A stretch of 64,000 nucleotides of DNA from an uncultured Pseudomonadales bacterium. GTDB taxonomy: Bacteria > Pseudomonadota > Gammaproteobacteria > Pseudomonadales > Azotimanducaceae. The stretch spans positions 1,364,001-1,428,000 of the forward strand of contig OY282455.1 in NCBI GenBank assembly GCA_958296195.1. The letters are read 5' to 3'. This document shows, in pieces, positions 30,590 through 38,779 of this stretch; position 1 is the stretch's first letter, and every line of letters begins with the position of its first letter. A program made the position numbers and the translations under genes. The notes under the pieces were generated by a model, which was not told the origin of the DNA, searched no databases, and worked only from the letters and a program-made list of their open reading frames with translations.

Positions 30590-31486
30590 ATGCCGAAAAT
30601 GGCTGACGACGGCCCCGCATCCTCCGGCGGCGAGGCGGCGCCTCCTGGAGAGCACTCCCGCAAGGAGTCCTCAAACAACAACCCGCCGCCGAATGACGCC
30701 GCTGCCGCATCCGGGGAAGCAGCCAAGGACGCCACCGCCAAGACTCACGATGAGCTGGTCGATAGCGCAGAGATGCCGTTCATGGCCCATGTGGTGGAAC
30801 TGCGTCAACGCCTGCTGCGCAGCCTGGGCGCCGTGGGCCTGCTGTTTTTGCCGATCTACTACTTCGCCAACGACCTCTACACCTTGGTGGCCGCGCCGCT
30901 GCTGGCGCATCTGCCGGGCGAGGGCACCATGATCGCCACCGAAGTGGCCTCGCCGTTCCTGACGCCGTTCAAGCTGGCGGTCTATGCGGCCATCTTCGTG
31001 GGCATGCCGGTGCTGCTGCACCAAGCCTGGTCCTTCGTGGCGCCTGGGCTGTACAAGCACGAAAAGCGCTTCGCCTTGCCGGTGCTCTTTTCCAGCATTT
31101 GCCTGTTCTACATGGGCATGGCGTTCGCCTACTTCGCGGTCTTCCCGCTGGTGTTTCAGTTCATGGCCGGCGTCACCCCCGTCGGCGTGACCATGATGAC
31201 GGACATCAACCGCTATCTGGACTTCGTGCTCACCCTGTTCTTCGCCTTCGGCTTCGCCTTTGAAATTCCCGTCGCCACGCTGCTGCTGGTCTGGTCCGGC
31301 ATCAGCACCGCCGCCAGCATCGCCCACAAACGCCCCTACGTCATCGTCGGCTGCTTCATCGCCGGCATGTTGCTGACGCCGCCGGACGTGATCTCCCAAC
31401 TGCTGCTGGCGCTGCCGACCTGGGTGCTGTTTGAAGTCGGCGTCCTGTTCGCCCGCATCGCTGAGAAACGCCGTGACAGGGACTAG
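30590..31486 (+). CDS. tatC: Tat translocase subunit TatC
   Basis: 298 residues from ATG 30590. Six membrane helices begin with MPFMAHVVELRQRLLRSL, the TatC cytoplasmic opening, and include MTDINRYLDFVLTLFFAFGFAFEIPV. The family-like part starts only near residue 62. Before it lies a Pro/Ser/Asn/Ala-rich hydrophilic extension of about 60 residues. ATG 30599 or a GTG upstream are other start options, and none removes the extension. It ends the conserved block; the accessory ubiquitin-like operon follows after 67 bases. Confidence 0.94.
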   Translation: MPKMADDGPASSGGEAAPPGEHSRKESSNNNPPPNDAAAASGEAAKDATAKTHDELVDSAEMPFMAHVVELRQRLLRSLGAVGLLFLPIYYFANDLYTLVAAPLLAHLPGEGTMIATEVASPFLTPFKLAVYAAIFVGMPVLLHQAWSFVAPGLYKHEKRFALPVLFSSICLFYMGMAFAYFAVFPLVFQFMAGVTPVGVTMMTDINRYLDFVLTLFFAFGFAFEIPVATLLLVWSGISTAASIAHKRPYVIVGCFIAGMLLTPPDVISQLLLALPTWVLFEVGVLFARIAEKRRDRD

Positions 31487-31553
31487 CATCAGCTTGCCTG
31501 TTCAGGGTGTGGTAGGCTTCCGATTAGCTGGTTGAGGTACTGAGGAGCACCCG

Positions 31554-32186
31554 ATGAAGCTGGAGCAGCGCATCTACTGCATTGAAGGCCAATGGAACTG
31601 GGGCAAGAAGGAAGTCGAGCCGTCGGTGGAGCCCATCCTGCAGCTACTGCAAAAGATGGGGCAGTGGAATTACGCACGGCGTGATTGTGCGACCTTACCG
31701 GAATTGCAATTTTGGTTAAAGCATGAGTGGAACACACGGTGTACTGAAGGCTCAATTTTGTACATCGCCTCGCACGGATCCGAAGGTCGTATTTGGCTGA
31801 CTTATGAAAATAGGGACAACGAGTCGGCTAGTCTTCATCAGCTCGCGGATGGTATGCTGGATTGCACGAACTGCTTGGTACACTTCAGTGGGTGCAACAT
31901 TATTGCCGCCGGAGCGGAAGACATTGTCCGGAAGTTCATGGACGACACTGGGGCTACTTGTGTAACAGGCTATGGTGCCGAAGTCGGCTGGGCGGACACG
32001 ACGTGGCCCCCGGCCTTGGCGCTTGATTTGATGTTATTCAGCTCAATCTCCGCGCAGGGGATTAGTTTTGACGATCGTCGAAAGGATGGCAAAAATATAA
32101 AGGCGTTGAGGAAATTGATCAAACGTTTCAACAGTAACGAGATATTTAAGAAATGCGGATTGGGGTTATGCACCAAGTGGGATTGA
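31554..32186 (+). CDS. DUF6642 protein, predicted caspase-like peptidase fold
   Basis: 210 residues resembling DUF6642: opening RIYCIEGQWN, the RDCATLPEL block, then His74 in LYIASHG and Cys114 in VHFSGCNI. The His-Gly and hydrophobic-x-Cys spacing is that of the caspase/CHAT protease dyad, so proteolytic activity is predicted but not shown. It starts at ATG 31554 behind GAGGAG. Base composition is clearly more A/T-rich than tatC and more than the following genes, which suggests separate acquisition. The ubiquitin-like gene starts 24 bases after its stop in the same direction, so it probably belongs to that operon. Confidence 0.68.
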   Translation: MKLEQRIYCIEGQWNWGKKEVEPSVEPILQLLQKMGQWNYARRDCATLPELQFWLKHEWNTRCTEGSILYIASHGSEGRIWLTYENRDNESASLHQLADGMLDCTNCLVHFSGCNIIAAGAEDIVRKFMDDTGATCVTGYGAEVGWADTTWPPALALDLMLFSSISAQGISFDDRRKDGKNIKALRKLIKRFNSNEIFKKCGLGLCTKWD

Positions 32187-32210
32187 TGCGTGTGCGCGTA
32201 GGAGGCTGCA

Positions 32211-32942
32211 ATGGACGGCGAAGTCAAAGTCGATGATCAGCCGGTGCCCGTTCGCTTGGGCTTGCGCCGCGTAGAGGAGCTTCTCGCCCTTGCCGACCGC
32301 GACGACCAGCAACTTTTCCTCGAACGTTCCGATCAAGTGGCCACGCCGCTCTTGCCTTCCGATCACATCCTGGTCCGCGGCGGGGAGCGTCTTACACGCG
32401 GTAGCGTAGCGCCGGACCCCAATCCCCGTCTGCCGCACCCAGTTCGCCCAACGCTCAATGGCGAGGCCATCGCGTTGCAAACAGCGAAGGTCACGGGTGG
32501 AGCGTTGAAGGAGAACGACAGCGAGTTTCCGAACGGCCGTCTCTTCGTGGAATCGGTGGGTGACACCGATTTGGAGGTGCCGGACGAGGCAACGCTTGTC
32601 GTACAAGACGCGGATGCATACTTCGTCGTGCCAGCGTCGCCGGAAAGCGGCGATGCGGTGGACGTGGAGGAATGCAGGAAGCACGGACGCCGTCCGCCGC
32701 GCGGCAACCACACTTACCGCATTCGCATTGACACCAGCAAATACTCGTTGGAGTCCCGAATCATCACGGGAACGGAGTTGCTTGCCTTGGTGGATAAGAA
32801 CTACCACGATTGGTCGCTGAACAAAAAGCTGCACGGCGGCCGCCGGCTGCGTGTGCAGCCGGCCGACGTGATCGATCTCTGCGTCCTTGACGTGGAACGT
32901 TTCGAGACGGTTCGACGGCAAGCGCAGCAGGGCCATGGATGA
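32211..32942 (+). CDS. Multi-ubiquitin-like protein, three beta-grasp repeats
   Basis: 243 residues, with a strong AGGAGG site before ATG 32211. Three successive ubiquitin-like segments can be drawn. Residues about 1-65 are the most divergent (VEELLALAD...DHILVRGGERL). About 75-145 contain LNGEAIALQTAKVTG and VVQDADAYFVVP. About 165-240 contain YRIRIDTSKYSL, ITGTELLALVDK and VERFETV. The last is the classic multiubiquitin pattern. The protein ends QQGHG, so its final residue is an exposed glycine, as needed for E1 adenylation. It would be the modifier of the conjugation system encoded by the next genes. Confidence 0.82.
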   Translation: MDGEVKVDDQPVPVRLGLRRVEELLALADRDDQQLFLERSDQVATPLLPSDHILVRGGERLTRGSVAPDPNPRLPHPVRPTLNGEAIALQTAKVTGGALKENDSEFPNGRLFVESVGDTDLEVPDEATLVVQDADAYFVVPASPESGDAVDVEECRKHGRRPPRGNHTYRIRIDTSKYSLESRIITGTELLALVDKNYHDWSLNKKLHGGRRLRVQPADVIDLCVLDVERFETVRRQAQQGHG

Positions 32943-33324
32943 ACCGTACCAGTTGCTTCCGGAGGACGCGGAGTATCTTGATGCGCATTACGCGAACAGA
33001 TGGCGGAAGGTGTCCGAAGGCGTGGGCAAGTGGGGCTTGGTGATAGAGCCATTCCCGCTTCCGGACGCCTATTTGCCGGGGCAAGCAACCTTGATGCTGC
33101 TAATCCCCAGCGGCTATCCGGGCGTTCCCATCGACATGTTCTATTTGCATCCTCCGGTCGCCAAGCGGAGCGGTGGCGCCATCGGCGCGTTGGCCGATGA
33201 GATGCACTTCGGAACCGTTTGGCAGCGCTGGTCGCGGCACTACGACTGGAATCCCGGCGAGGACAACGTAACGACGCACATCGAATACGTCAAAAACGAA
33301 CTCGAAACCGAGGCGCAACGGTGA
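32935..33324 (+). CDS. E2-like protein, prokaryotic E2 family E, cysteine-free
   Basis: 129 residues from ATG 32935, overlapping the ubiquitin-like gene by eight bases. The body matches prokaryotic E2 family E: the hydrophobic strand TLMLLIPSGYPGVPIDMFYLHPP (an E2 core signature), then FGTVWQRWSRHYDWNPGEDN. The translation contains no cysteine at all, so it cannot carry ubiquitin as a canonical thioester. It may act as a scaffold, use another nucleophile, or pass the modifier directly from E1 to target. Its stop overlaps the GTG start of the E1 gene. Confidence 0.8.
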   Translation: MDEPYQLLPEDAEYLDAHYANRWRKVSEGVGKWGLVIEPFPLPDAYLPGQATLMLLIPSGYPGVPIDMFYLHPPVAKRSGGAIGALADEMHFGTVWQRWSRHYDWNPGEDNVTTHIEYVKNELETEAQR

Positions 33325-34718
33325 AGTCGCTGGCCTTGGCGATGACCGGCCGGCAGCATGCGGAGCTGCACGGCTTTCTGTTCCCTGGGGATGGTTTGGA
33401 GGCGGCCGCCGTCCTGCTCTGCAATCGCGGCACCGGCCTGCGTTCCCAACGCCTGTTGGTGGCTGATTTCCTGCGTCTGCCGTATGAACGGTCGCGTCGC
33501 AAGTCCACTGAAGTCAATTGGCCGTTTGGTGACCATCTGCCGCCGGAGAGAATCACGGAGATTGACCGCAAAGGGCAGTCGATATTCACCATTCACTCCC
33601 ACCCCAAGGGTCCAGGTGCCTATTCCGCAATCGACGACCAGAACGACCGGATGCTGTTTCCCTCCGTTTGCGGTTGGTTTGATGACGGACGGGCCAACGG
33701 TTCCGCCATCATGTTGGCGGACGGGCGGATCGTCGCCCGCACGGTGGATGAGCATGGTGGCTTCAGGGACATCGAAACCGTGGCGGCGGTAGGTGAGGAC
33801 ATCCGCCTGTGGAAACATGGGAGCGGCAACGGCGTTGGTGGCGATGCGTTTGAACAGAAGCTCGAACAGACCTTCGGCCGCGGTACGCTATCCCTCCTAC
33901 GGTCCATGCGCGTCGGCGTGGTCGGATGCTCCGGCACTGGCAGTGTCGTCGTCGAATTGCTAGTGCGCAACGGTGTGGGCGAACTGGTCTTGGTGGACGA
34001 CGACGTTGTGGAGCGAAAAAACCTAAACCGAATTGTCAACGCATCCGAGCAAGATGTGAGCCAGGGCCGAGCGAAGGTGGCCGCGATGAAGGAGGCGGTG
34101 GAGCGCCTGGGAACAGGGTGTCGCGTCATCGCCCATCGGGCGCGAACTGACGCCCCGGCGGCAGTAGCCGCGTTGGTGGACTGCGATCTGATCTTCGGCT
34201 GTGTGGACACCGCGTTCGGGCGGTACCACTTGGACTGCCTTGCCAGCGCCTATCTCATGCCGTACTTCGACGTGGGGGTGTACTTGGAGGCGGATGGCGG
34301 CGGCGGCATCCAAGCGGCGGACGCCGTGTCCCACTATGTGCATCCGGAAGGCGCCAGTCTGCTCTCCAGAGGTGCCTACACCATGGCCCAGGTGGCCGCC
34401 GAAAACGCCCGGCGTTACGACCCGGCACACTATCGCCGACAGCAGGCGGCGGGGTACCTCGCCGCCGTGGGCGAGGAGCAGCCGGCTGTTCTTTCCGTCA
34501 ACATGCAGGGCGCTTGCATGGCGTTCAATGACTTTCTCGCACGCATTCACGCTTACCGGCTGGACGACAATCGCGAGTTCGCCACGCAACGGTTTCGTTT
34601 GGTGCATGGGTGTTACGAAACCACCGCTGACGCATCTTGCGCACATCCACTGTTAAAGCCGCATGTGGGCGCTGGCGACCGCAGCTTGCTGGTGCGGAAC
34701 AACATCGTCCATGATTAA
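33321..34718 (+). CDS. JAMM peptidase-E1 fusion (JAB-ThiF)
   Basis: 465 residues from GTG 33321 (ATG 33342 is an alternative). Residues about 85-110 carry a perfect JAMM metalloprotease motif, His92-x-His94-Pro-x6-Ser102-x2-Asp105, predicting a deubiquitinase or processing peptidase. From about 195 an E1/ThiF adenylating domain follows: GVVGCSGTGSVV, then ELVLVDDDVVERKNLNR and FGCVDTAFGRYHLD. The combination should adenylate the glycine of the ubiquitin-like protein and also remove it. The usual E1 cross-over cysteine region reads GASLLSRGAYT here, with Ser rather than Cys, so the transfer residue is unclear. Overlaps with both neighbours indicate one transcript. Confidence 0.86.
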   Translation: MKSLALAMTGRQHAELHGFLFPGDGLEAAAVLLCNRGTGLRSQRLLVADFLRLPYERSRRKSTEVNWPFGDHLPPERITEIDRKGQSIFTIHSHPKGPGAYSAIDDQNDRMLFPSVCGWFDDGRANGSAIMLADGRIVARTVDEHGGFRDIETVAAVGEDIRLWKHGSGNGVGGDAFEQKLEQTFGRGTLSLLRSMRVGVVGCSGTGSVVVELLVRNGVGELVLVDDDVVERKNLNRIVNASEQDVSQGRAKVAAMKEAVERLGTGCRVIAHRARTDAPAAVAALVDCDLIFGCVDTAFGRYHLDCLASAYLMPYFDVGVYLEADGGGGIQAADAVSHYVHPEGASLLSRGAYTMAQVAAENARRYDPAHYRRQQAAGYLAAVGEEQPAVLSVNMQGACMAFNDFLARIHAYRLDDNREFATQRFRLVHGCYETTADASCAHPLLKPHVGAGDRSLLVRNNIVHD

Positions 34719-35079
34719 GCGCATCTTCAACCTCGTCGCAAGATGCCGCCGGTACCGGACCCTGTGGGTGGAGGATCTGCCGGAGAACGTCGCGCCGCAA
34801 ACGGTGTACATCCTCGGCGGGCGCGACCATCCTTTCTACGCCGCCGTGGTGTGCCCGCGCCGCGCCTGCCGACAGGTAATCCACTTGGAGCTATCGCCGC
34901 AAGTGGAGAAGCCTTGGCGTCTGATCGAGCACAGCGATGGCAGCATATCCCTTGCGCCGTCCGTCCATGTCACAGCCATGCCGTGCCGCTGCCACTATTG
35001 GTTCAGGAGTGGTCGCATTGTTTGGGCCGAAAGGCCGCCCTTTTTGGTGCCGAAGGAGAACAAATGCTACGCAAGGTAG
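34711..35079 (+). CDS. DUF6527 family protein of ubiquitin-like operons
   Basis: 122 residues from ATG 34711, overlapping the E1 gene by eight bases and the ATPase gene by sixteen. Cys48-x4-Cys53 (CPRRAC) and the late block ISLAPSV...PCRCHYWFRSGRIVWA are the DUF6527 pattern. From memory the family usually has Ser where this protein has Cys94 (CRSHY against CRCHY), possibly an altered active site. Proteins of this family recur next to multi-ubiquitin, E2 and E1-JAB genes. Their precise role here is unknown; a peptidase role has been suggested for relatives. Confidence 0.7.
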   Translation: MIKRIFNLVARCRRYRTLWVEDLPENVAPQTVYILGGRDHPFYAAVVCPRRACRQVIHLELSPQVEKPWRLIEHSDGSISLAPSVHVTAMPCRCHYWFRSGRIVWAERPPFLVPKENKCYAR

Positions 35080-36680
35080 AGATCAAGAATTTCAAGGTGT
35101 TCCAAGACGAGGCCTTCAACATCCCGCAGCATATGGTGGTGGTTGGGCCTAACAATGGAGGCAAGACTTCACTGTTGCAGGCCGTAGCCACTTGGGCCGA
35201 GATAGCCAACCACTGGTTCGAGACGAACGCCGATTTTGCTCGCATTGAAGACGGCAATTACGCTGCAACCAGTCTCAATATGCTTCGATTCAACGCGGTG
35301 CCTTTGCCGGACTTCCGGCACCTGTGGTCCAACAAGGTGGTGACAACGCCCGTTTCTCTTCGGGTGCATGGGGACAACTGGTGTGTTGGGTTCGAGATCA
35401 TCCATTCGGCGACCGAATTGGCGGGTGTGCGCCCAATGAAAGACGTTACCGAGACGCATTTGGAAAGATGTAGGGAAAACCTGCCGACGGTCGCTTACAT
35501 TCCTCCTGTCTGGCGACTGGCGGTTAGGGAGGATCCTCTTACCGAAGATGGCGTTCGAGCGAAGCTCCGCCGCGGCCAAATGGCGGATGTGCTAAGGAAC
35601 GTATTGCGCTTCGTTTCCGGTGACGAAACCAAATGGAAACGCCTTCAAGAGGCGGCTTCTTCCTTTTTTGGCTACGAACTGCTGGTGCCGAGTGCCGGGG
35701 CGTATGTGATCGCGAACTACCGCCACGGCACCGAGGGTAGAGAGTATGATCTGTGCAGCGCCGCCAGCGGTTTCCTACAAGTTCTGGCGGTGTACGCTGG
35801 CCTTCTGTTCGACGACGCTTCGGTAATCTTGGTCGATGAACCAGACGCCCATCTACATTTCTTTCTGCAAGAAAAGATCTACCGCGATCTCCAGAGGTTC
35901 TCTATGGTGGCGAATTCGCAGATCGTTATGGCCACCCACTCGGAAGTGATCGTCAGAACGGCGGAGTTGAAGGACCTGCGTCTGTTGTGGGGCGGGCTTC
36001 GTGAAATGCCCAAGAATAAGCGGGTGGATGACGTGATGCGCCTAGACAACGCAAAGTTGATGCTGGCGGAGACGACACTTGGCGTTCTCTATGTTGAGGA
36101 CGAGTCGGACCTCCACAACATGCGCGAGTGGGCGTGCGTCCTGTCTCATCCGGCGTTTGGATTTCTCGACAAACCGTTCTGGGAGGCGACGGCGCCGGGA
36201 CGCGGTCGTGATTTTGCGGCCAAGAACTTTGGCGCGATGCGGCAACTTGTGCCGACGTTGAAGGCAATCGAAATCCGTGACGGGGACAAGACGCTGCCTA
36301 AGAAAACATCAGCGGGGTTGTTGCGTTTGCAATGGAATTGGACCGAGATTGAGAACTATCTGATCCATCCATCGGCGTTGGAGCGCTTCGTGCGGGAAGT
36401 CTGTGGAGAAGATGCAGCCCGGCGGGTGGTTAATTACATGAGGAAAGAGTTGCCGGCACCGATCTTTGAAGCACCGTTCGAGCGGCCCTTGATCGCCGAG
36501 ACAAAAGGATCGACAGTGCTAGACCACATCCTGCAAGAAGCGGGGTTGCGGTTAGAGAAGACCAAGTACTGGCGCATAGCGGCACAGATGCGGCCGGAGG
36601 AAGTTCATCCGGAAGTGCGGGACAAACTCGACGCTATAGCCACCCACTTCGGGATCGGTGGCGGGACCGGTGCAGATTGA
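35064..36680 (+). CDS. OLD-like ATPase with TOPRIM nuclease domain
   Basis: 538 residues from ATG 35064 with GAAGGAG eight bases upstream. ABC/SMC-like ATPase: IKNFKVF opening, Walker A GPNNGGKTS (28-36), signature-like SAASGFLQVLAVYAGLL, Walker B VILVDEPDAHLH (254-265) and THSEVIV. A TOPRIM domain follows: VLYVEDESD with Glu345, and RDGD at 405-408. This is the overlapping-lysogenization-defect layout, in which the ATPase controls a DNA nuclease. It is the last gene of the ubiquitin-like operon and overlaps DUF6527, so it is almost certainly co-expressed. It is the plausible effector or the target of modification. Confidence 0.82.
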   Translation: MLRKVEIKNFKVFQDEAFNIPQHMVVVGPNNGGKTSLLQAVATWAEIANHWFETNADFARIEDGNYAATSLNMLRFNAVPLPDFRHLWSNKVVTTPVSLRVHGDNWCVGFEIIHSATELAGVRPMKDVTETHLERCRENLPTVAYIPPVWRLAVREDPLTEDGVRAKLRRGQMADVLRNVLRFVSGDETKWKRLQEAASSFFGYELLVPSAGAYVIANYRHGTEGREYDLCSAASGFLQVLAVYAGLLFDDASVILVDEPDAHLHFFLQEKIYRDLQRFSMVANSQIVMATHSEVIVRTAELKDLRLLWGGLREMPKNKRVDDVMRLDNAKLMLAETTLGVLYVEDESDLHNMREWACVLSHPAFGFLDKPFWEATAPGRGRDFAAKNFGAMRQLVPTLKAIEIRDGDKTLPKKTSAGLLRLQWNWTEIENYLIHPSALERFVREVCGEDAARRVVNYMRKELPAPIFEAPFERPLIAETKGSTVLDHILQEAGLRLEKTKYWRIAAQMRPEEVHPEVRDKLDAIATHFGIGGGTGAD

Positions 36681-36889
36681 AGGTTACACAGCCGTCGTGC
36701 CCGCATCACGGCGGAAGGTCGGCACCGGTGCCGCCAGAAGCGAGGGCTGCGCCAAGCCGCCGACATCGTGACCGCCCGCCGGCCGGGAAGTCCATCAGCG
36801 GCTGCTGACGCCGGAGCGGTCGAAGCCTGGGAGGCCGCTTGAGTGCATGGACGAATTGCTGGGCCGTCGCCTTGCCTCCTAGGTTGCTT

Positions 36890-37327: not shown

Positions 37328-37630
37328 GGGCGTTGGCTTGGATGGTGCGGGAAGGTGTGAAGGGTGCTGTTTGGCATGTCGGACAGGGCAACCGATCGAG
37401 TGCAATAGATATGCGTCTAACAGATTGGTGTGTGATTAGGCAAGCCACATCTTGAAATGTTTGCGATCGCCGTGGTGTTGTCGCGGACGGACACGATTAT
37501 TCTGTCGCCCAATGCGTCAACTTGCACAGGCGCAGGGATGAATTGAGGCAGCTCCAATCCGCCCTTAGCCTACGCGAATGGGAGAGATCCGCCGTATCCA
37601 AGTGCTGTGCATGGGGCCAAGCTGGGCAGC

Positions 37631-38779
37631 ATGGACCAGCGGTCACCCCAAGGAAATCCCAGCGCTGAGGCGAAAGGGGATGCTTTCCGTCCTAAGCAGG
37701 ACCTCGGCCAAAAGCGCCTGTTCTCGCACCAGCGCATGGTCGCCGACCTGCTGCGCCTGCTGCCGAAGGGCTTGACTGGGGGTTTTGACCTCAACACCCT
37801 GCGCCGCCCGCCGGCCGAGCATGTCGCCGACGCTCTGCGCAGCCGCCGCAGTGACATGCCTTGGCGCATCGACTTCCTGCCGTCCACCGAGCGCCCGTCT
37901 GATGGAAGCGGCGCGACGCGGCTCGGTGACGAAGGCTCCTCGGCGAAAGGGACGTCCCCGCCGGCCCAATTTTCGCCAAGCCCCCCGGCGGTGGAGCGTC
38001 CGGGAACCTGCTTGCTGCTGATCGAGTTTCAGTCCACGGTGGATTTGCGCATGGCGGACAGGATGCTGGAGTACATGGTCCTGCTGCGCGGTGACTTGGC
38101 TCGGGAGGGCAGGGTGCGGGGACCCGGCGGCGGTCCGCCGCCCCTGCTGCCGTTGGTGGTTTACAACGGCCGGCGGCCTTGGACCGCACCAGTCGAATTG
38201 GGCGGTGGGTTGAGGGGCTTGCCGGCGAGGTTGGCGGACATTCAGCCGAAGTTTGAGTATGAGCTGCTGGAGGTGCGCCGCTTCAACCAGGACGTCTTGG
38301 CGTTGGGGTTGCAGGAGGGCGCCTTCGGCGTAAACTTCGCCTTGGCGCTGTTCGCTTTGGAGAACGCCTCGGCGGAGAACCTGTCGTCGGGTATATCCGC
38401 TGTCGCTCGGCTGCTGAAGGCGGAGGGCGAGTTGGATTTGGCGGAGTCGTTCGGAATGTGGGTCGAGGGTGTGCTGGAGCCCCGCTTGGGCGTTCGGCTG
38501 CCGTCCCTGAAGGAAATGATGGAGGAGCCACCGATGCTGGCGGAGACGTTGGATGAATGGGCCGAGGAGAAGTATCGGCTGGGCTGGGCTGAGGGCATGG
38601 AGCGGGAGCGGGCGTTGCTGCTGCGTCAGGCGAACCGGCGTTTCGGCGCGGACGTTTCTGAGGCGTTGGCGAAGCTGATCAAGGGCGTGGACGATCCCGA
38701 CCGTCTCGCCGAGGTGGGGGACTTGATCGTGGATTGCACCACAGGTCGAGAAATGCTCGACCACGCCAGCCGCGCTTGA
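37631..38779 (+). CDS. Rpn/YhgA-like PD-(D/E)XK nuclease
   Basis: About 382 residues from ATG 37631 (GTG 37607 upstream is possible). The central LLLIEFQSTVDLRMADRMLEYM contains the IEFQS variant of the PD-(D/E)XK motif, with DFLPS upstream, as in the Rpn/YhgA-like recombination-promoting nucleases (Transposase_31). A Ser/Pro/Gly-rich insertion lies between the two parts (about 95-130). The C-terminus (RERALLLRQANRRFG, LAKLIKGV) resembles the DUF4351-type tail of many relatives. The family is associated with accessory DNA and, in some cases, defence. No terminal repeats are visible. Confidence 0.82.
   Translation: MDQRSPQGNPSAEAKGDAFRPKQDLGQKRLFSHQRMVADLLRLLPKGLTGGFDLNTLRRPPAEHVADALRSRRSDMPWRIDFLPSTERPSDGSGATRLGDEGSSAKGTSPPAQFSPSPPAVERPGTCLLLIEFQSTVDLRMADRMLEYMVLLRGDLAREGRVRGPGGGPPPLLPLVVYNGRRPWTAPVELGGGLRGLPARLADIQPKFEYELLEVRRFNQDVLALGLQEGAFGVNFALALFALENASAENLSSGISAVARLLKAEGELDLAESFGMWVEGVLEPRLGVRLPSLKEMMEEPPMLAETLDEWAEEKYRLGWAEGMERERALLLRQANRRFGADVSEALAKLIKGVDDPDRLAEVGDLIVDCTTGREMLDHASRA

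What the first reader, a model, noticed from the sequence alone, without database searches (positions are those of the whole stretch)
31554..36680. Ubiquitin-like conjugation operon coupled to an OLD-type nuclease and a caspase-like protein
Six genes run in one direction: DUF6642, three-fold ubiquitin-like protein, E2 family E, JAMM-E1 fusion, DUF6527 and OLD-like ATPase/TOPRIM. The last five overlap by 4-16 bases. Multi-ubiquitin, E2, E1-JAB and DUF6527 operons are known from comparative genomics, and related bacterial ubiquitin-like systems act against phage. Linkage of that core to an OLD/TOPRIM nuclease and a DUF6642 protein is, as far as I know, not described. Inference: conjugation regulates the nuclease or protease, giving an abortive or defensive response.
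Basis: partly seen in the sequence, partly recalled or inferred. Interest (0 to 1): 0.95.

Follow-up and report, generated by a model that had tools for sequence, protein, structure and literature searches.

The report
Ubiquitin-like operon linked to OLD nuclease
A horizontally acquired bacterial gene cluster joins a known ubiquitin-like protein-tagging pathway, whose purpose is unproven, to an enzyme of a DNA-cutting family used against viruses, and this pairing recurs in related clusters from several bacterial phyla.

Summary
The core (threefold ubiquitin-like protein, E2-like, JAB-E1, DUF6527) is not new: it is the polyUbl operon type of Iyer 2006, now called Bub; profiles match solved BubCD (E 1e-155) and BubB (8e-40). 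The new part is the OLD gene. Among 80 related loci, an OLD-type ABC-ATPase/TOPRIM gene follows the core in 11 of 11 of the closest relatives (four named phyla) and 0 of 69 others. The OLD-bearing E1s form one clade, their OLDs form one clade, and OLD and E1 identities correlate (r 0.90). Outside OLD relatives had no Bub operon beside them. DUF6642 is different: 0 of 80 loci, lower GC, three further copies in this genome; it looks like a passenger. The block is a ~5.4 kb insertion; the nearest relative has an almost empty tatC-dtd site. Most likely this is a Bub subtype with an OLD effector, perhaps controlled by conjugation (inferred). Defence genes and CapH/CapP-type regulators flank several relatives, but none was found in the window's own flanks. 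Two other Bub loci carry a Mre11/Rad50-like pair instead. The two main Bub papers could not be read, so priority is unchecked.

The parts
31554..32186 (+). DUF6642 protein, 210 aa; HG (74-75) and C114 dyad as in caspase-like peptidases (motif recalled); inside the same insertion but not conserved with the operon
   Evidence: Pfam PF20347 4e-8; alignment of 4 copies; absent from 80 loci; GC 0.507
32211..32942 (+). BubA-like protein, three ubiquitin-like domains, last one ending at a conserved Gly (QAQQG) with a two-residue tail
   Evidence: Pfam PF14452; solved multi-ubiquitin proteins 9cd2 2e-7, 9d59 4e-6, BubA C-terminal domain 9ea8 0.016
32935..33324 (+). BubB-like E2 (Prok-E2_E); the window's protein has no cysteine
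   Evidence: Pfam PF14462 2e-29; solved BubB 9eae 8e-40
33321..34718 (+). BubCD-like JAB-E1 fusion, GTG start, 465 aa; JAMM-type residues E27, H92, H94, S102, D105 and the adenylation motif present
   Evidence: Pfam ThiF/Prok-JAB; solved BubCD 9ea4 1e-155
34711..35079 (+). DUF6527, 122 aa, Zn-finger-like (C48, C53, C92, H95); clade-specific R50 and C94 and a C-terminal extension
   Evidence: Pfam PF20137 3e-14; AF2 pLDDT 86, no fold match under E 0.001
35064..36680 (+). OLD-type ABC ATPase with C-terminal TOPRIM, 538 aa
   Evidence: Pfam AAA_21 4e-19; profile hits OLD 6p74 9e-13, PtuA, GajA; best fold match OLD 6p74 E 1e-10, TM 0.33; invariant residues
31487..36889 (.). insertion between tatC and dtd; the nearest same-genus relative has about 40 bases between the aligned ends of the two genes
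   Evidence: E1 absent from 18 of 18 relatives

Best explanation
This is a Bub (bacterial ubiquitination-like) conjugation operon of a subtype that has acquired an OLD-family ATPase/TOPRIM gene and keeps it, spread as a cassette between distant bacteria; it most likely works as an inducible defence or DNA-damage-response system. Proposed working: (1) the JAB half trims the tri-ubiquitin-like protein after its conserved C-terminal Gly (inferred from sequence); (2) the E1 half adenylates that Gly and, with the cysteine-less E2-like protein, attaches the tri-Ubl to a target (chemistry known only for relatives, recalled); (3) the OLD protein, an ABC-ATPase with an intact TOPRIM-type site, is the nuclease effector, and conjugation or the Bub complex licenses or restrains it, much as conjugation enhances cGAS in CBASS (title and abstract start of PMC10097602 seen in listings); the JAB half reverses it (inferred). 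DUF6642, a possible HG/C peptidase, is a passenger in the same insertion. My odds: Bub-OLD cassette as described 0.9; function in defence or DNA-damage response 0.7; OLD as effector controlled by conjugation 0.4.
For: Bub membership by sequence to solved BubCD, BubB and multi-ubiquitin/BubA chains. OLD follows the core in 11 of 11 closest loci and 0 of 69 others, 66 of the 69 having at least 500 bases beyond the core. One change on the E1 tree (quick method, SH-aLRT 100), 0 of 500 shuffles as low. Bub-linked OLDs one clade against 10 outside rows, 100/100. Identities congruent, OLD-E1 r 0.896, 0 of 5000 permutations, 9 taxa (the three with partial OLDs left out). dN/dS 0.08-0.26 for four genes between L015 and L033. 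OLD is kept where DUF6527 is missing (L022, L023). HTH + M78 peptidase regulators within 0.8 kb upstream in L016, L017, L018, L033, L016's matching capP 5e-37; such pairs switch on adjacent immune operons upon DNA damage (PMC13373217, passages). Defence-type genes by relatives: HsdM (L016, L017, L018), PsyrT 3e-275 and SIR2 (L018), HmaB-type methylase and SNF2/PLD helicase (L015, L033). The last Ubl ends in a Gly-closing motif in 78 of 78 (permissive pattern), and 58 of 78 are fused to the E2, so a processing step is plausible.
Against: No direct evidence that the OLD is conjugated, or that it cuts DNA. The 11 loci are one clade, so the linkage is one evolutionary event, not repeated gain. Two of 11 OLDs are interrupted (L016, L020) and one E1 carries a stop (L024), so the cassette also decays. 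The window has no HTH/M78 pair upstream, and five of its flanking genes gave no PADLOC match at 1e-10. Bub operons have not been shown to protect against phage (PMC13373217). L019's one scanned neighbour and L024's upstream gene gave no defence match. DUF6527's role stays unknown.
Confidence: 0.5

Rival explanations
1. OLD is an independent second weapon: two defence modules share one operon but never touch each other biochemically.
For: OLD proteins act alone or with varied partners (PMC10568477, passages); cassettes lie beside other defence-type genes in several relatives; OLD homologues elsewhere stand without Bub.
Against: 16-base gene overlap and retention in 11 of 11 loci across four named phyla; congruent identities; DUF6527 altered in exactly this clade.
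Confidence: 0.3
2. The system is a DNA-damage or housekeeping stress response, in which OLD processes DNA ends and Bub regulates repair proteins; phage defence is incidental.
For: DNA-damage-responsive regulator types near relatives (PMC13373217); an archaeal OLD acts in the cell cycle (PMC12796447, search listing); Mre11/Rad50-like pair follows Bub in L058 and L084.
Against: Absence from 18 of 18 relatives and company of restriction-modification and other defence-type genes fit defence better.
Confidence: 0.2
3. DUF6642 is a working sixth component, a caspase-like protease released or controlled by the conjugation system.
For: It ends 24 bases before the Ubl gene, same strand, inside the same insertion; HG/C dyad in 4 of 4 copies.
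Against: 0 of 80 loci; different GC; its closest copy (55%) sits beside a C5 methylase elsewhere in this genome; no caspase match.
Confidence: 0.07

Closest known systems
Bub operons (Citrobacter BubCD/BubB/BubA structures 9ea4, 9eae, 9eav; polyUbl operon row 6e of Iyer 2006, PMC1779556)
   Same: Multi-domain Ubl, cysteine-less E2-like, JAB-E1 fusion, Zn-finger-like DUF6527
   Different: Fifth gene is an OLD ATPase/TOPRIM; DUF6527 has R50/C94 in place of the usual C50/S94 and a longer C-terminus
OLD proteins of Gabija (GajA), Septu (PtuA), retrons and PARIS; T. scotoductus OLD 6p74
   Same: ABC ATPase head and TOPRIM-type E..D, D.[DN], E.E residues; best fold match 6p74
   Different: Partner genes are a ubiquitin-like conjugation system; the contexts of classes 1-4 in the passages seen of PMC10568477 do not include it
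Bil, type II CBASS (Cap2/Cap3), 6A-MBL
   Same: E1, E2, JAB logic of bacterial Ubl conjugation in immunity (recalled, and passages of PMC11354881)
   Different: E2s of operon types 6a-6d carry a conserved cysteine (PMC1779556, section 14), here none; 6A-MBL cap2_3 model 38.1 bits against a cut-off of 320

Membership tests
Bub / polyUbl operon | JAB-E1 fusion homologous to BubCD | tested here: met
   E 1.3e-155 over profile 2-431 of 440
Bub / polyUbl operon | E2-like protein lacking the catalytic cysteine | tested here: met
   BubB E 7.7e-40; no column with Cys in more than 16 of 81 rows, 35 rows with no Cys
Bub / polyUbl operon | Ubl protein of one to three domains ending in a Gly | tested here: met
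   Gly-closing motif in 78 of 78 relatives
Bub / polyUbl operon | Zn-finger protein (DUF6527) | tested here: met
   77 of 80 loci; C48, C53, C92, H95 present, C50 and C106 of most others not
Bub / polyUbl operon | protein conjugation without thioester intermediates | not testable with these tools
   mechanism recalled from Ye 2026; paper not held
OLD family | ABC ATPase plus C-terminal TOPRIM in one chain | tested here: met
   TOPRIM from residues and predicted fold only, no Pfam TOPRIM hit
OLD classes 1-4 | alone, or beside GajB, in a retron, or as ariA/ariB | tested here: not met
   the preceding genes are Bub genes in the window and 11 of 11 clade loci; class definitions from passages of PMC10568477
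OLD family | DNA cleavage | not testable with these tools
   no assay
Bil / CBASS II / 6A-MBL | E2 with catalytic cysteine | tested here: not met
   window E2 has no Cys
caspase/CHAT peptidases (DUF6642) | His-Gly and Cys dyad | tested here: met
   4 of 4 copies, all of this genome; motif recalled
caspase/CHAT peptidases (DUF6642) | homology to a known caspase-fold family | tested here: inconclusive
   no caspase match in PDB or Pfam; structure not predicted

The most novel reading that the evidence does not exclude
Bub conjugation is a control layer for DNA-processing ABC-ATPase nucleases: in one clade it governs an OLD ATPase-TOPRIM, in other Bub operons (L058, L084) a Mre11/Rad50-like pair, so that tri-Ubl tagging arms or restrains a nuclease. 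This would be a further OLD class and would give the Bub pathway, so far without a proven job, an effector.
Probability: 0.33. Interest if true: 0.85.

Novelty: new variant of a known kind. Interest (0 to 1): 0.62.

Why it matters
Bub pathways are numerous (544 operons cited in PMC13373217, passages) but protection against phage had not been shown and no effector is named in what I could read. A conserved, co-inherited nuclease-family gene supplies a candidate effector and makes the question testable by ordinary genetics. It would also show ubiquitin-like tagging controlling a nuclease in bacteria.

Tried and rejected
DUF6642 as a component: rejected on 0 of 80 loci and GC. TOPRIM by Pfam: no hit; taken from residues and fold. 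DUF6527 fold: model pLDDT 86, no structural relative with E under 0.001. DUF6642 structure not predicted: both jobs went to OLD and DUF6527. Phage records: no E1 match. Plasmids: 111 records with an E1 match, all under 60% identity, 10 with OLD-like matches at 25-30%; only the best 15 of the 111 were listed, so the two lists were not fully compared; the best plasmid hit (44.5%) has the four core genes and no OLD after them. Promoter/terminator scan: near chance. Insertion ends: one 30-base repeat at 70% identity lies near both ends (31451-31480, 36699-36728), too weak to tell from chance. The 80 loci are the best 80 of 96 confirmed; 16 were not seen. Near-copies inside the 69 without OLD: L035/L038 and L036/L037, so about 67 distinct. 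The C-terminal extension of DUF6527 overlaps the likely OLD ribosome-binding site (read by eye), so part of its conservation may be translational coupling.
Full report
Observation. The six genes, families and overlaps are as reported. The insertion lies between tatC and dtd (Pfam TatC 6e-66, Tyr_Deacylase 4e-55). In the nearest same-genus genome the aligned ends of these two genes are about 40 bases apart, while the window has about 5.4 kb there. In five other same-genus genomes the interval is 0.5 kb (L178) or 3.2-3.9 kb of other genes; six of eight same-genus relatives were looked at. The JAB-E1 gene is found in none of 18 relatives (8 same genus, 4 same family, 6 same order). The island genes' third-position GC is 0.62-0.78, against 0.84-0.86 for tatC and ubiB. 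I infer that this lineage gained the block recently. Five flanking genes gave no PADLOC match at 1e-10.

What the core is. Iyer 2006 (PMC1779556, section 14 read in full; table passage) described operons of polyUbl, an inactive E2-like protein, JAB-E1 and a Zn-finger protein. A 2026 paper (PMC13373217, passages) names the family Bub, cites 544 operons and states that protection against phage has not been demonstrated. Profiles match solved Citrobacter BubCD (1e-155), BubB (8e-40) and multi-ubiquitin proteins (2e-7). No E2 column holds Cys in more than 16 of 81 rows. JAMM-type and adenylation residues of JAB-E1 are kept in 80-81 of 81 rows. C294, in the FxCVD motif, is the only cysteine of the E1 half kept in most rows (79 of 81). 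The last Ubl domain ends in a motif closing with Gly in 78 of 78 relatives (permissive pattern): 20 are separate genes with tails of 0-7 residues after it, and 58 are fused to the E2. So trimming by the JAB half is the obvious maturation step (inference).

The OLD gene. A scan of species genomes with a three-row E1 alignment gave 96 confirmed places, of which the best 80 were kept. E2 and E1 are in 80, MultiUb in 78, DUF6527 in 77. OLD follows the core on the same strand in 11 (in L022 after a gap of about 0.3 kb, in L022 and L023 without DUF6527). These are exactly the 11 loci with 57% or more E1 identity to the window. By record title they come from Pseudomonadota, Latescibacterota, Chloroflexota and Bacteroidota; L015, L017, L020 and L033 are records titled 'chromosome: 1' of 3.6-6.0 Mb. 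None of the 69 others has it; 66 of them extend at least 500 bases past the core, and about 67 are distinct. The sister locus L025 has 1461 bases beyond its core and no OLD.

Trees. The OLD label needs one change on the E1 tree, SH-aLRT 100 (quick method), 0 of 500 shuffles as low. Bub-linked OLDs form one clade against 10 outside rows, 100/100. The outside relatives (14 of 397 other genomes at E under 1e-20) show no MultiUb, E2 or DUF6527 hit in the fetched surroundings, some of which are cut by contig ends; one shows a weak E1-domain hit 5 kb away. Seven viral OLD-like loci tested had no Bub hit either (7 of the 33). Pairwise identities of OLD and E1 correlate at 0.896 over 9 taxa. Of the 11, eight OLDs are full length, one is cut by a contig end (L019) and two are interrupted (L016, L020); one E1 has a stop (L024).

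OLD as a protein. The profile hits OLD 6p74, PtuA and GajA by its ATPase part. The AF2 model (pLDDT 81.7, pTM 0.59, 9 rows) has OLD 6p74 as best fold match at E 1e-10, but TM is 0.33 and rmsd 16.8, so the domain arrangement is unsure. K34 (Walker A), D258/E259 (Walker B), and E345, D349, D406, E428 and E430 (TOPRIM type) are invariant in 9 of 9, and position 408 is D or N; the motif names are my reading.

Co-change in DUF6527. In the clade R50 and C94 are present in 10 of 10 rows; elsewhere position 50 is C in 67 of 68 and position 94 is C in 1 of 68. Clade proteins run 9-20 residues past the profile end (9 loci), against 0-3 in 56 of 68 others (3 have 21). Part of that stretch encodes the likely OLD ribosome-binding site, a caution.

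Surroundings of relatives. HTH plus M78-peptidase genes (CapH/CapP type) lie upstream in L016, L017 and L018, and fused in one gene in L033. HsdM is in L016, L017, L018; PsyrT and SIR2 in L018. A DUF1156/HmaB-type methylase lies before, and an SNF2/PLD helicase after, the cassette in L015 and L033. L019's one scanned neighbour and L024's upstream gene gave no match; L024 has a DprA-family gene downstream. L020-L023 were not scanned.

Recurring theme. In the 69 others, upstream genes recur (largest family in 20 loci) but no downstream family is in more than 3 loci. Two loci that are not sisters on the tree (L058, L084) have a metallophosphatase plus SbcC/Rad50-like pair downstream on the same strand, 135 and 28 bases after the core. 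The OLD profile does not match it. This is a second linkage of Bub to an ATPase-nuclease-type pair, on two loci only.

DUF6642. No match in 80 loci, also with a four-copy profile at E up to 10. In a sample of 398 genomes of the phylum only the window's genome has the family, in four copies. One copy sits 63 bases after a C5 methylase gene. It travels within the same insertion here but is not part of the conserved system.

Mechanism and novelty. Shown: homology, order, conservation, co-inheritance. Inferred: processing, conjugation, effector role, defence. The OLD review (PMC10568477, passages) sorts OLDs by genetic context; its main text holds the word ubiquitin nowhere. I found no paper on a Bub-OLD pairing in searches, but the primary Bub papers were not held. 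I file it as a new variant of a known kind.

Noticed in passing
L058:11844-15565, L084:11719-15509: Bub operons followed on the same strand by a metallophosphatase and an SbcC/Rad50-like gene; a second ATPase-nuclease-type linkage.
   Followed up: partly
L015:5790-16567, L033:4910-16542: The Bub-OLD cassette sits between a DUF1156/HmaB-type methylase and an SNF2/PLD helicase, as if nested in another defence system.
   Followed up: partly
window 31487-36889: The tatC-dtd interval is a variable site in this genus: about 40 bases in one genome, 0.5 to 3.9 kb of unrelated genes in five others.
   Followed up: partly
L161, L162, L163 (own genome): Three further DUF6642 genes: one next to a C5 methylase (L163), one about 2 kb from an AAA ATPase plus DUF3226 pair (L161), one about 3 kb from an AAA_21 ATPase (L162).
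   Followed up: partly
L053:9659-11122: E2 and most of JAB-E1 read in one open frame, with no MultiUb hit in the locus.
   Followed up: no
L016:12380-12480: The OLD gene is interrupted by a short stretch that looks like a dispersed repeat (judged by eye).
   Followed up: no
window 37607-38779: A 390 aa protein of the Transposase_31 (YhgA-like) family, 1e-11, lies near the insertion beyond dtd.
   Followed up: no
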